DNA of 64,000 nucleotides from positions 5,890,001 to 5,954,000 of the forward strand of contig NZ_CP014546.1 in NCBI RefSeq assembly GCF_001579805.1, given 5' to 3'. The DNA is from Pseudomonas azotoformans. GTDB lineage: Bacteria > Pseudomonadota > Gammaproteobacteria > Pseudomonadales > Pseudomonadaceae. The notes under the pieces are model-generated. The model was not told where the DNA came from and searched no databases. It saw only the letters and a list, made by a program, of their open reading frames with translations. Made by a program: the position numbers and the translations under genes. Below are positions 4,171 through 33,289 of the stretch, piece by piece. Position 1 is the stretch's first letter; the number at the start of each line of letters is the position of its first letter.

Positions 4171-4338
4171 TGTATTGAGTACATATCCGTTCTTTGGGTA
4201 ACGGCTGAAATAGGTTCCGCCCTTACGGCGGCTCACTTTTGAAAAGCCGGAATGCCGGCCCAGCCAAAAGTAAGCAAAAGGCTCTTGCCCCAACACTCGG
4301 CACCTCGCCTAGGCTCGGTATGCCCGTAATCCGACAGT

Positions 4339-4418
4339 GATTTGGGGGGCCGCCGCCACGCGCCATCCATGGCGCGGGGCGGCTAAACCGGCATCCCTGC
4401 CGGTTTACCCCCCAAATC
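4339..4418. repeat. Left cloverleaf (three-way junction) module of repeat copy 1
   Basis: An 11-base perfect outer stem (GATTTGGGGGG at 4339-4349 with CCCCCCAAATC at 4408-4418) encloses two hairpins. Hairpin one (4350-4382) pairs CCGCC with GGCGG and CGCGCC with GGCGCG. Hairpin two is a perfect 10-base stem, TAAACCGGCA / TGCCGGTTTA, with a four-base loop. The copy in the third element is at 32656-32735; the second element lacks it. Confidence 0.7.
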
Positions 4419-4477
4419 CCTGCCGAATTCCGGCCAGCGTGTTTGACGGGGCGCCTAAGATCAAAATCAAAAACAAA

Positions 4478-4507
4478 GCCAGAGCCAGAGCCAGAGCCAG
4501 AGCCAGA
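4478..4507 (+). repeat. (GCCAGA)5 tandem repeat
   Basis: Five perfect copies of a hexanucleotide, read directly from the sequence, lie between the left 46-base arm and the central REP doublet. Equivalent positions in the other two elements hold six and seven copies. Confidence 0.95.
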
Positions 4508-4528
4508 GCTGAGTTGGATCTGCTTTTC

Positions 4529-4615
4529 TGTGGGAGCTGGCTTGCCTGCGATGGCATCAACTCGGTGTACCTGATGTACTGAGATGTCTGCATCGCAGGC
4601 AAGCCAGCTCCCACA
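4529..4615. repeat. REP doublet (REPIN-like) at the centre of repeat copy 1
   Basis: Two perfectly inverted 24-base REP units (4529-4552 and 4592-4615, core GGGAGCTGGCTTGCCTGC) are separated by 39 bases. This is a well-known dispersed repeat type of fluorescent pseudomonads, usually attributed to RAYT transposases acting in trans. No RAYT gene is in the window. Confidence 0.85.
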
Positions 4616-4716
4616 TTTGAACCGAGATCGGCTTGCAATACCGGTCGGCTCGAAGGCCGCCGCGGTTGTTTTTGATTTTGATCTTAGGCGCCCCGTCAAA
4701 CACGCTGGCCGAACGC

Positions 4717-4807
4717 AGGCTTGAATCCGTGGGTAACCCGGCAGGACGCCGGGTTAGCCGCGCTGGGCCAAGGATGGCCCATCGCGGCGGCCCACGGATT
4801 CAAGCCT
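4717..4807. repeat. Right cloverleaf (three-way junction) module of repeat copy 1
   Basis: A perfect 17-base outer stem (AGGCTTGAATCCGTGGG with its complement at 4791-4807) encloses two hairpins: TAACCCGGC / GCCGGGTTA with a five-base loop, and GCCGCG-TGGGCCA / TGGCCCA-CGCGGC with an AGGA loop. The same module occurs at 21961-22051 and 33051-33140. Confidence 0.75.
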
Positions 4808-4904
4808 TCGTTCGGGCACACCGAGCCTAAGCGAGGTGCCGAGTGTTGGGGTAAGAGCGCTTTGGTGGACTTGTTCCCTCAAAACGTACGCCATGAAGCG
4901 AGTG

Positions 4905-5702
4905 TTAAGCAGTTTGCTTCAGTTGCTTTGCGTAGTCATTAGGTGAGCTGTATCCCAGCGCCGAGTGCAGCCGTGCCGCGTTGTAAAACCCATGGATGTA
5001 GCTTGCGATTGATGCATGGGCCTGTGCTTTGCTGGGATACACACCGATGGCTTCTTCCTTCTTGAGTGTGGCAAAAAAGCTCTCTGCCACGGCGTTATCC
5101 CAGCAATTCCCCTTACGGCTCATGCTTTGCACGAAGCCTCTTTCCGCGATCATGCTACGAAAACCGCTACCGGTGTATTGTCGGCCTCGATCAGAGTGAA
5201 AAATCACACCGTGATCCACGGGCGCTCTGGTCCAGGCGTTCATGAACGCCTGTTGTACCAAGCCCTCGGGCATACGATCCGACAGGCTGTAACCCAGCAC
5301 CTGCCGGGTCTGGATACTCAACACCACAGCCAAGTACAACCAACCCTGGCGGGTCGAAATATACGTGATATCCCCCACCCAGGCGGGTGCTGGGCTTGTC
5401 ACGGAAAAGCGTCGTTTTAACACGTTGTCAGAAATAGGTTGGATATACCGGTTATCCGTCGAGTGTTTGAAGCGGGCTTTGATTTTTCCTCGCAGCATTT
5501 CCTCTCTCATCAGACGAGCTACTCGCTTGTGCCCTATCGCGTACGAGCGGTTATGAAGCGCCTTAACCATGCGTGGACGCCCATAAGTGCCTCGGCTTGC
5601 CCGATGAATCGCGCGAATTTCCAAGCGAATCGCCACATCTGGATCAGGACGTTTCTGACGCTTCAAATAGCCGTGAAAGCCCGACACCGAGACCTCCATC
5701 AC
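4905..5702 (-). CDS. IS3-family transposase OrfB (DDE catalytic part)
   Basis: This frame encodes the catalytic half of the transposase. The rve-type integrase fold carries the DDE triad in the contexts WVGDITYI, FHSDRGRQY and AVAESFFATLKKE, so all three acidic residues are present. The frame stays open upstream of the GTG at 5702 (reading ...FVARERTHFPVRLLCR before it), which shows the protein is normally made as an OrfAB fusion by -1 frameshifting rather than from its own start. Given coordinates cover the part from the first possible start codon. The stop is 39 bases from the left IS end. Confidence 0.9.
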   Translation of the reverse strand: MMEVSVSGFHGYLKRQKRPDPDVAIRLEIRAIHRASRGTYGRPRMVKALHNRSYAIGHKRVARLMREEMLRGKIKARFKHSTDNRYIQPISDNVLKRRFSVTSPAPAWVGDITYISTRQGWLYLAVVLSIQTRQVLGYSLSDRMPEGLVQQAFMNAWTRAPVDHGVIFHSDRGRQYTGSGFRSMIAERGFVQSMSRKGNCWDNAVAESFFATLKKEEAIGVYPSKAQAHASIASYIHGFYNAARLHSALGYSSPNDYAKQLKQTA

Positions 5703-5758
5703 TCGACATAACAGCCTGACTGGAAAGTGAGTCCGTTCACGGGCGACAAAGGCGTATC

Positions 5759-32162: not shown

Positions 32163-32507
32163 AGGTATTCCTGCGTTTCCAAATCGCGGAGTCGGGCAGT
32201 CACGCGGGCGGGCGCGGTGCTCGGTTTTTTTTGGGGTGTCGGGCGATTTGGGAAGCTAGGTGTGGGGCGAGGTTTGAATTGGCAACATGCGTTGAACTCC
32301 CTTCCAACGATTCTGCTGCGGGGGTGTCAGCGCAGAATCCGAATCTAGATTGGTACCATCCGAGGTCAGGGGTAGGCTGTTGAGTTCAAACATAACGGAA
32401 TGGATTTTAAAAATATAATGCTATTTGGGTATAAGCTAATATTCTCAGATTTCATTATTTCTTTTTAGAATTATTCTTATTGGTAATGTTTTTTTGCAGC
32501 TAGGTAC
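32163..32507. other. Intergenic region upstream of the amine-oxidase operon
   Basis: These 345 bases contain no convincing gene. On the minus strand they should carry the promoter of the operon beginning at 32162. The segment 32390-32460 is AT-rich. Bases 32419-32440 (plus strand, ending ATAAGCTAAT) weakly resemble the shared motif at 21410 and 23602, with about 14 of 22 aligned positions matching. The remainder shows nothing I can name. Confidence 0.4.
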
Positions 32508-32655
32508 GTGTACATATCCGTTGCTGTGGTAACGGCTACTTATGGTTCCGCTCTTACAGCGGGTCACTTTTGGAAGAGCGCCAAAAGTAACCAAAAACGC
32601 TTCGCCCCAACACTCGGTACCTCGCCTAGGCTCGGTATGCCCGTAATCCGACAGT

Positions 32656-32735
32656 GATTTGGGGGGCCGCCGCCACGCGCCATCCATGGCGCGGGGCGGC
32701 TAAACCGGCATCCCTGCCGGTTTACCCCCCAAATC
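32656..32735. repeat. Left cloverleaf (three-way junction) module of repeat copy 3
   Basis: Same structure as 4339-4418: GATTTGGGGGG at 32656-32666 pairs with CCCCCCAAATC at 32725-32735 around two hairpins, the second being the perfect TAAACCGGCA / TGCCGGTTTA stem. Confidence 0.7.
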
Positions 32736-32800
32736 CCTATCGAATTCCGGCCAGCGTGTTTGACGGGGCGCCTAAGATCAAAATCAAGATCTAAAGCAAA

Positions 32801-32842
32801 GCCAGAGCCAGAGCCAGAGCCAGAGCCAGAGCCAGAGCCAGA
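32801..32842 (+). repeat. (GCCAGA)7 tandem repeat
   Basis: Seven perfect hexanucleotide units, the longest of the three equivalent tracts in the window. Confidence 0.95.
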
Positions 32843-32862
32843 GCTGAATTAGATCTGCTTTC

Positions 32863-32949
32863 TGTGGGAGCTGGCTTGCCTGCGATGGCATCAACTCGGT
32901 ATGCCTGATGTACCGAGTCGCCTGCATCGCTGGCAAGCCAGCTCCCACA
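32863..32949. repeat. REP doublet (REPIN-like) at the centre of repeat copy 3
   Basis: Units at 32863-32886 and 32926-32949 are inverted with one mismatch, core GGGAGCTGGCTTGCC, the same type as in copy 1. Confidence 0.85.
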
Positions 32950-33050
32950 TTTGACCGAGTTCGACCAAACAATACCGGTCGGCTCGAAGGCCGCCGCGGT
33001 TGTTTTTGATTTCGATCTTAGGCGCCCCGTCAAACACGCTGGCCGAACGC

Positions 33051-33140
33051 AGGCTTGAATCCGTGGGTAACCCGGCAGGACGCCGGGTTAGCCGCGCTGG
33101 GCCAAGGATGGCCCATCGCGGCGGCCCACGGATTCAAGCC
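33051..33140. repeat. Right cloverleaf (three-way junction) module of repeat copy 3
   Basis: Same outer stem and two inner hairpins as 4717-4807. The outermost pair is lost because the sequence after TTCAAGCC diverges. Confidence 0.75.
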
Positions 33141-33289
33141 GGAGTGAGGGCATGCCGAGCCTAGGCGAGGCACCGAGTGTTGGGGCGAAGGCCTTTTGGT
33201 TACTTTTGGGCCTTTCCAAAAGTGACCCGCTGTAAGAGCGGAACCATAGGCCGCCGTTACCCAAATAACGGATATGTACACCAAACAAC

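What the first reader, a model, noticed from the sequence alone, without database searches (positions are those of the whole stretch)
4179..33281. A large nested-palindrome composite repeat occurs three times and matches no element type I know
Copies at 4179-6199 (IS-interrupted), 21507-22192 and 32508-33281 share one blueprint: terminal inverted repeats ending TGTACATATCCG, outer arms of about 135 bases, cloverleaf modules, a 46-base perfect inverted repeat (copy 1), a hexanucleotide tract, and a central REP doublet. The IR-in-IR layout suggests a non-autonomous mobile or structured element built around a REP pair. REP doublets are known, but I do not know a family with this wider architecture.
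Basis: partly seen in the sequence, partly recalled or inferred. Interest (0 to 1): 0.85.

Follow-up and report, generated by a model that had tools for sequence, protein, structure and literature searches.

The report
Repeated inverted pair of RsmA-type RNAs
The three big palindromes are copies of a Pseudomonas repeat made of two back-to-back copies of one folded RNA whose loops look like docking sites for a global regulator protein, and the DNA just outside each RNA end has an unusual one-sided base bias that deserves testing.

Summary
In detail: the copies belong to a family of 28 analysed copies (19 inverted pairs, 9 single units) in this 6.86-Mb Pseudomonas genome. The cloverleaves match Rfam TwoAYGGAY (RF01731); all 42 matches found in the genome lie inside copies. 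Aligning 22 units from 10 genomes shows that the whole ~280-base half (inner arm, cloverleaf, outer arm) is one structured RNA: 37 of 52 pairs have compensatory changes, 95.7% of cells pair (36-47% when slid). So the 'terminal inverted repeats' are RNA helices of two oppositely facing units, not demonstrated transposon ends. Both hairpin loops keep A(N)GGA, the high-affinity RsmE/CsrA loop; CsrA binding of TwoAYGGAY was already predicted in print. Unexpected extra: all 47 outer flanks examined here are G+T-rich on the strand reading towards the element (0.73 in the first 50 bases, fading by ~800). The same gradient appears in named Pseudomonas genomes (90 of 99 ends) and is weaker at orthologous sites without the element (15 of 16 rows). 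It occurs whichever way the neighbouring gene runs. Mutation bias or selection for G-poor read-through RNA could cause it; undecided. An IS3-type element has four genomic copies, all in one spot of this repeat. Mobility, expression and RsmA binding are unproven.

The parts
4179..4314 (-). Copy 1, left unit, outer arm A (3' part of the RNA, which reads leftwards)
4315..4441 (-). Copy 1, left cloverleaf T_L = TwoAYGGAY RF01731, 59.5 bits
4432..4476 (-). Copy 1, left inner arm B; 46-base perfect inverted repeat (4431-4476) with 4666-4711
4477..4510 (.). Copy 1, AGCCAG hexanucleotide tract
   Evidence: sequence
4529..4615 (.). Copy 1, central REP doublet
4666..4711 (+). Copy 1, right inner arm B
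4703..4821 (+). Copy 1, right cloverleaf T_R = TwoAYGGAY RF01731, 56.4 bits
4814..4865 (+). Copy 1, right outer arm A, part before the IS
4866..6116 (-). IS3-type insertion sequence (two frames: HTH_Tnp_1, 97 aa; HTH_21 and rve, 265 aa); four copies in the genome, all in the same spot of this element
6117..6201 (+). Copy 1, right outer arm A, part after the IS, to the TGTACA end
21507..21698 (-). Copy 2, left unit, damaged: outer arm A, about 40 bases of T_L, inner arm B; TGTACAT end missing
21770..21866 (.). Copy 2, central REP doublet
21914..21954 (+). Copy 2, right inner arm B
21947..22065 (+). Copy 2, right cloverleaf T_R = TwoAYGGAY, 56.4 bits
22058..22193 (+). Copy 2, right outer arm A
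32508..32631 (-). Copy 3, left outer arm A
32632..32758 (-). Copy 3, left cloverleaf T_L = TwoAYGGAY, 59.6 bits; hairpin loops contain AGGGAU and AUGGAU
32749..32790 (-). Copy 3, left inner arm B
32797..32844 (.). Copy 3, AGCCAG hexanucleotide tract
32863..32949 (.). Copy 3, central REP doublet
33001..33044 (+). Copy 3, right inner arm B
33045..33147 (+). Copy 3, right cloverleaf T_R = TwoAYGGAY, 49.9 bits; loops contain AGGAC and AAGGAU
33148..33281 (+). Copy 3, right outer arm A, with covarying hairpins and the TGTACA end
3779..4178 (+). Flank left of copy 1, G+T-rich on the + strand (0.70 in the nearest 100 bases)
22194..22593 (-). Flank right of copy 2, G+T-rich on the - strand (0.69 in the nearest 100 bases)
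32108..32507 (+). Flank left of copy 3, G+T-rich on the + strand (0.62 over 400 bases) although the neighbouring gene is transcribed away from the element
33282..33681 (-). Flank right of copy 3 (3' end of a secretin gene), G+T-rich on the - strand

Best explanation
Each half of the palindrome is one ~280-base structured RNA unit, read outwards 5'-B-T-A-3', a longer form of Rfam TwoAYGGAY. Shown: the fold and its conservation, the two A(N)GGA loops, the multi-copy dispersal, the mostly outward-facing pairing, and the A-side base bias. Inferred: transcripts that run through the unit (from the gene on its B side, or from either side of a pair, since an inverted pair always offers one unit in the sense direction) present two loops to an RsmA/RsmE (CsrA) dimer, so that several tens of dispersed units act as RsmA-binding 3' regions and together as a distributed sponge. 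Inferred more weakly: transcripts leaving the A end have to be ended, and the C-rich, G-poor, hairpin-poor outward strand beyond A serves that (Rho-type termination); this would explain why the bias sits on the A side only, follows the RNA and not the genes, has no motif and evolves slowly. The REP doublet and AGCCAG tract in the middle are spacer, probably of separate origin.
For: Rfam: 42 matches to RF01731 in the genome, 41 over the cut-off, each inside a copy (positions compared); 5 in the window. RNA fold: 22 units from 10 genomes, 52 pairs, 37 with a change on both sides; cells paired 95.7% against 77.6% shuffled and 36-47% slid; covariation in T (helices 3-6) and in A (helices 7, 9, 10). 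Three single sequences fold with z -7.55, -6.91 and -4.91. Loops: A and GGA are invariant in 22 of 22 in both hairpins; an ANGGAX hexaloop on a stem is the published high-affinity RsmE consensus (PMC4005645, passages); three CsrA homologues in the genome. CsrA binding of TwoAYGGAY predicted in PMC4333381 (passage). Conservation of T: T_R median 100% and T_L 97.4% identity among copies against 85% for A. Position: 8 of 9 single units have the B-side gene transcribed into the unit (own crude gene calls). A-side bias.
Against: No expression or binding data. In other lineages only 14 of 24 units have a co-directional gene on the B side, so a 3'-UTR role is not general. In T_R the first loop is AGGAC, without the looped-out N, and may bind less well. 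No promoter stands out (1 found, 0.6 expected). The same scan finds 4 terminator-like sites against 1.6 expected; two of them are in the A arms on the strand read INTO the element, so transcripts coming from outside may stop before they reach the sense unit of a pair. The Rho idea does not by itself explain why A falls as well as C on the toward strand, nor a reach of 400-800 bases; the tail beyond A is A+C-rich in G008 (A .33, C .34, G .17) but only mildly C-rich in G015, G020 and G001 (G .23-.24). In a palindrome the antisense arm could pair with the sense unit and prevent its fold.
Confidence: 0.6

Rival explanations
1. Non-autonomous transposable element (MITE-like): the outer arms are transposon ends that a transposase supplied in trans recognises; the RNA fold is a by-product of inverted repeats.
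For: Long inverted arms with a fairly constant GTACATATCCG end; intergenic, multi-copy; some sites empty in relatives, e.g. G134 at L064, L070, L072, L078.
Against: Hairpins inside one arm covary across lineages (helices 7, 9, 10), as RNA hairpins do. Single halves are common (9 of 28). No target duplication seen at the empty sites read with both flanks placed (L064, L070, L072 and L078 twice). No element with these ends and its own transposase gene met among the matches. Many sites shared between species whose neighbouring genes are 85-96% identical.
Confidence: 0.15
2. The flank bias is mutational: a recurrent nick or break at the A end, with loss of the 5' strand into the flank, leaves the strand reading towards the element single-stranded and prone to C and A deamination; repair from other copies keeps the element and homogenises T.
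For: Gradient centred on A ends, on both sides of pairs and on the A side only of single units (G+T .64 against .51 in the first 100 bases); same sign for genes read towards and away; protein sequence conserved while synonymous sites change; relatives without the element have weaker bias (15 of 16 rows lower); the two sites where another insert has replaced the element keep most of the bias.
Against: Third-position divergence is lower, not higher, near the A end (0.076 in 1-100 against 0.14-0.16 beyond 400); the shift from C to G exceeds what deamination alone gives (base shares); no cleaving enzyme identified. Weak or absent around the G015 and G008 units.
Confidence: 0.3
3. The copies simply settle in places that already have the bias (insertion preference for gene 3' ends with a G+T-rich coding strand).
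For: Many A ends abut stop codons; convergent gene ends without elements have a slightly raised value (GT3 .557, n=118, against .510 for all 324 controls).
Against: In 324 control genes GT3 of the last 66 codons is .51 (sd .10, maximum .848), while 8 A-adjacent genes have .85-1.0; orthologues without the element are mostly lower; the bias also lies over gene starts.
Confidence: 0.1
4. The units act at the DNA level (cruciform or attC-like folded strand, recombination hot spot), not as RNA.
For: Hairpins fold in DNA as well; contig ends of draft genomes fall near copies; an IS targets one spot.
Against: Invariant GGA loops in 22 of 22 with covarying stems and a strand-specific Rfam match are those of an RNA; loop identity should not matter for a cruciform.
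Confidence: 0.1

Closest known systems
TwoAYGGAY RNA (Rfam RF01731, clan CL00106; Weinberg 2010, PMC2864571; Gardner and Eldai 2014, PMC4333381)
   Same: Two adjacent hairpins with AYGGAY-type loops inside an enclosing stem; matches over the curated cut-off; CsrA binding predicted for the family in print.
   Different: Here the conserved structure runs on through arm A (helices 7, 9 and 10), lies in tens of copies per genome, and is mostly arranged as outward-facing inverted pairs. The passages I saw list human gut, gamma-proteobacteria and Clostridiales and do not mention repeats or pairs.
CsrB/RsmX/Y/Z-type sponge RNAs
   Same: A(N)GGA loops on stems; predicted to bind RsmA/RsmE/CsrA.
   Different: Those are (from general knowledge) one to a few stand-alone genes with many GGA motifs; here two sites per unit, many dispersed units, no promoter seen.
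Intergenic repeat families of P. fluorescens (Silby 2009, PMC2718517: R0, R2, R178, R200 and others) and MITEs
   Same: Multi-copy, intergenic, some with inverted repeats; R200 (320 bp, 47 copies in SBW25, 8 in Pf-5, none in Pf0-1) has about the size of one half.
   Different: The R200 sequence was not in the text I could see, so identity is open; no RNA identity or pairing is described in the passages seen.
REP doublets / REPINs / BIMEs with RAYT (Nunvar 2010, PMC2817692, passages)
   Same: A REP doublet sits in the centre of the pairs.
   Different: The conserved part is the 280-base unit around it; single units occur. Five REP doublets away from copies have G+T .46 at 1-50.57-.60 at 51-200 and .50 at 201-400, so no like gradient, but the sample is small.
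IS elements that target repeats (REP-targeting IS; from memory)
   Same: An IS3-type element sits at one spot in 4 of 4 genomic copies.
   Different: Its target is the A arm of this RNA repeat.

Membership tests
TwoAYGGAY (RF01731) | Covariance-model score at or above the gathering score | tested here: met
   5 matches in the window at 49.9-59.6 bits, cut-off 43; 41 of 42 genome matches over it
TwoAYGGAY (RF01731) | Two hairpins with AYGGAY loops in an enclosing stem | tested here: met
   A(N)GGA invariant in both hairpins in 22 of 22 units; enclosing helices 3 and 4 covary. Exact AYGGAY is not kept in every loop: T_R has AGGAC and AAGGAU, T_L has AGGGAU and AUGGAU
CsrA/RsmA-binding RNA | ANGGAX hexaloop directly on a stem | tested here: met
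   Alignment A1 against the consensus in PMC4005645; the first loop of T_R lacks one base
CsrA/RsmA-binding RNA | Binds the protein and titrates it in the cell | not testable with these tools
   No binding or expression data
MITE | Terminal inverted repeats | tested here: met
   78- and 82-base outer arms, 86% and 84%, but hairpins inside each arm covary as RNA
MITE | Target-site duplication and clean empty sites | tested here: inconclusive
   15 site-by-genome cases given; both flanks placed in 8; of these 5 are empty (L064, L070, L072, L078 twice), 2 replaced by other inserts, 1 a deletion remnant; no duplication seen
MITE | Autonomous partner with the same ends | tested here: inconclusive
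   End matches (40 of 151 candidates scored) lie in the described copies; the only transposase inside is the IS3-type element with its own ends. Own genome only
REPIN/BIME | Element defined and bounded by inverted REPs | tested here: not met
   REP doublet is internal in pairs, and 9 of 28 copies are single units
Silby family R200 | Sequence identity with the published consensus | not testable with these tools
   Consensus is in a supplementary figure; only size and counts seen

The most novel reading that the evidence does not exclude
A dispersed, multi-copy regulatory RNA repeat that supplies tens of RsmA/CsrA docking sites to unrelated transcripts, often sits as inverted pairs so that transcription from either side reads one unit in sense, and reshapes the synonymous sites of neighbouring genes for up to about 800 bases beyond its RNA 3' end, by a polar process that follows the element and neither gene direction nor, to first order, fork direction.
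Probability: 0.35. Interest if true: 0.87.

Novelty: new variant of a known kind. Interest (0 to 1): 0.72.

Why it matters
If right, a class of anonymous intergenic repeat in fluorescent pseudomonads is a structured RNA, and the Rsm/Csr network would have tens of extra docking sites per genome that differ between strains. The polar base-composition gradient beside it is measurable in any genome with the repeat, alters codon choice in adjacent genes without changing proteins, and makes a direct test possible of whether mutation or selection on RNA ends shapes it.

Tried and rejected
Transcription as cause of the flank bias: rejected as sole cause, because flanks whose nearest gene is read away from the element (21 of 47) have the same sign and similar overall size. 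At third codon positions the excess is smaller for away genes (.63-.71 within 400 bases over a base line of .53-.55) than for toward genes (.74-.89 over .49).

Replication direction: dnaA is at 1.514 Mb, so the terminus is near 4.9 Mb by halving (my inference). The side facing the fork is somewhat more biased (at 101-400.649 against .591 on the right replichore, n=12.599 against .592 on the left one, n=7), but both sides are biased. An earlier pooled comparison had shown little difference.

Chi or another motif: GCTGGTGG occurs once in the 47 near flanks, and no motif stands out beyond composition. REP doublets as a control: only 5 fitted my strict pattern, so this control is weak. Raised mutation rate near the element: the opposite was found.

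Blind scan for skew switches: in the window and in 4.00-4.06 Mb the top peaks are at copies, and in 4.54-4.72 Mb the top two are; but in the element-free 160 kb the best peak is .52 and two peaks without a copy in 4.54-4.72 Mb reach .56 and .51, which overlaps the copies' range (.30-.69), so the scan alone does not separate them. I read two of the non-copy peaks by eye and searched five for inverted repeats; one lies in what looks like an RHS gene.

One T_L plus one T_R per pair: 17 of 18 two-module copies here, but only 10 of 19 close pairs in named genomes, so it is no rule for the genus. 18 of those 19 pairs face outwards.

Rows dropped or moved: the B-side flanks of the 9 single units were kept out of the 47 A-end flanks and are given apart; a 58-base fragment (L063) was left out. 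In the orthologue comparison (82 rows) I moved four rows from absent to present (L073 in three genomes, L074 in G222: arm seen just outside my distance limit) and set four apart as lost (G134 L062 and L066, replaced by other inserts), leaving 62, 16 and 4. Several rows share a site, so the p values overstate. Against a simple link: orthologues without an adjacent A end but with high GT3 exist (L180 .85, L187 .89, L192 .80), and one empty row has more bias than G000 (G103 L078.637 against .620). One search used 80 of the 120 stretches found.

Genome searches score only some first-look candidates (40 of 151, 150 of 280, 2 per genome), so copy and genome counts are lower bounds, and the lack of copies in 0-2.7 Mb rests (matches there are only to the REP and AGCCAG middle).
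Full report
WHAT IS THERE. From copy 3 I defined modules: outer arm A, cloverleaf T, inner arm B, a tract of AGCCAG units, and a REP doublet. Blast of copy 3 against the window's own genome (6.86 Mb, one contig) gives about 30 clusters; I fetched them and mapped the modules. Twenty-eight copies were analysed: 19 inverted pairs and 9 single units (A-T-B). T modules are nearly identical between copies (T_R median 100%, T_L 97.4%), outer arms are not (median 85%). In the sampled genus, 85 of 298 genomes match at E<=1e-60 with only two candidates scored per genome, a lower bound.

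IDENTITY OF THE CLOVERLEAVES. They are Rfam TwoAYGGAY, RF01731: five matches in the window over the cut-off, and 42 in the genome, 41 over the cut-off, every one inside a mapped copy. The RNA strand reads outwards in each half. Of 38 genomes searched with the family (own included), 17 have a match, 15 over the cut-off, some with tens of matches; none of 14 control genomes has one.

THE WHOLE HALF IS ONE RNA. From four other Pseudomonas genomes I fetched 20 stretches around matches. Sequences differ, but the order is the same: B, two GGA hairpins, then a series of hairpins. I aligned 22 units from 10 genomes. RNAalifold predicts 52 pairs, 37 with compensatory change. Counted on that structure, 95.7% of cells pair; shuffles give 77.6% (0 of 500 reach it) and slid partners 36-47%. 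The covarying helices lie in T and also in A. The structure was predicted from the same alignment, which favours it somewhat. The window's two units fold 6.9 and 7.6 standard deviations below shuffles. So the outer arms that look like transposon ends are part of an RNA fold, and the palindrome arises because two units face away from each other.

RSMA/CSRA. In both T hairpins an A, then one variable or missing base, then GGA is invariant in 22 of 22 units. An ANGGAX hexaloop on top of a stem is the high-affinity RsmE site (PMC4005645, passages). Gardner and Eldai already proposed that TwoAYGGAY binds CsrA (PMC4333381, passage), so this link is not new; what I did not find in print is the multi-copy, paired, repeat nature in Pseudomonas. 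Searches for that; for a flank bias: (no paper with all terms). Of the papers listed I saw passages only of PMC4333381, PMC2864571, PMC11701678, PMC2718517, PMC2817692 and PMC4005645; the rest I saw only as titles and abstract starts. The genome has three CsrA homologues. Binding, expression and effect are untested.

CONTEXT. In 8 of 9 single units here the B-side gene runs into the unit (my own simple gene calls); in other lineages 14 of 24. Pairs lie between genes in several orientations. All mapped copies lie between 2.73 and 6.34 Mb; dnaA is at 1.514 Mb, so none is nearer than about 1.2 Mb to it, in line with the variable terminus side described for these bacteria (PMC2718517, abstract passage). 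The window shows 1 promoter-like site (0.6 expected) and 4 terminator-like sites (1.6 expected) around copy 3; two of the latter are in the A arms and read inwards.

THE FLANK BIAS. Reading towards the element on either side, the flank strand is rich in G and T. Over 47 A-end flanks: G+T .725 at 1-50 bases.63 at 51-200.605 at 201-400.545 at 401-800.51 beyond; 47 of 47 exceed .5 in the first 50. At third codon positions of genes read towards the element, C falls to .02 next to it against .42-.43 far away. Of 324 control genes the highest G+T at the last 66 third positions is .848; eight A-adjacent genes have .85-1.0 and two B-adjacent genes .38 and .42. Single units show it on the A side only (.64 against .51 in the first 100 bases). 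It is present whichever way the neighbouring gene runs, with some extra on the fork-facing side. It is weak or absent around the units of G015 and G008 and moderate in G020.

ORTHOLOGOUS SITES. For two genes next to copies, orthologues with an adjacent A end have GT3 .73-.94 (one with the arm 66 bases off.70). Those without mostly have .41-.76, with three exceptions (.80.85.89); three with an A arm reversed or farther off have .42.47 and .65; one with a partial arm has .76. The protein ends are much the same, so the change is mostly synonymous. At further sites in three relatives: 62 rows with the element in both.635 against .629; 16 rows without it in the relative.621 against .571, lower in 15 of 16; 4 rows where another insert has replaced the element.665 against .633. 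Rows share sites and ancestry. Near A ends the genomes differ less at third positions (.076 at 1-100) than farther away (.14-.16); by hand from those counts and the base shares, C is lost faster there while G and T are kept. This looks like constraint or a strongly one-way process, not merely a raised mutation rate.

HOW IT MAY WORK. I favour: transcripts pass through B-T-A, T docks RsmA/RsmE, and the outward strand beyond A is kept C-rich and G-poor because transcripts have to be ended there; in G008 an A+C-rich tail looks shared between copies (five copies by eye). The steps 'transcribed', 'binds RsmA' and 'Rho acts' are inferred. The rival is a break or nick at A with strand loss, which explains orientation and loss of both C and A but not the low divergence.

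AN IS THAT TARGETS IT. The 1.25-kb IS3-type element in copy 1 has four copies in the genome, reported at 100% identity, and all four sit in the same place of an A arm.

NOVELTY. The RNA family and its suggested CsrA link are known, as are anonymous Pseudomonas repeats. New here, as far as these searches show, are their union, the longer RNA, the paired arrangement, and the flank bias. Whether the unit equals Silby's R200 is open.

Noticed in passing
window 4866-6116: IS3-type insertion sequence; the four copies found in the genome (C1:4234250, 4543970, 5894864, 6261260) are reported at 100% identity and inserted at the same spot of the A arm of this repeat.
   Followed up: partly
window 6200-6247: A (CCA)n tract directly beyond the A end of copy 1; similar runs of GTTGGG and GTG beyond both A ends of L113; telomere-like in look, probably slippage in G+T-only sequence.
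   Followed up: no
L073, L074, L082, L093, L099, L103, L111, L112, L116: Some A ends carry a further, loosely shared stretch like CCGACCAGGATGTTGGATCAGACC outside the GTACATATCC end; in other copies G+T-rich text stands there, as if derived from it.
   Followed up: no
L242, L238, L245, L234 (G134): Shrunken pairs with A ends about 70, 212, 290 and 606 bases apart; in the smallest no T match is left: internal deletions of the palindrome.
   Followed up: no
G015 loci L285, L286, L289: Here the units stand as direct repeats 706-738 bases apart instead of inverted pairs.
   Followed up: no
G222 contigs C6, C7, C13, C17, C19, C20, C21, C24, C36: Many draft contigs begin or end near copies, as expected if the repeat breaks assemblies.
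   Followed up: no
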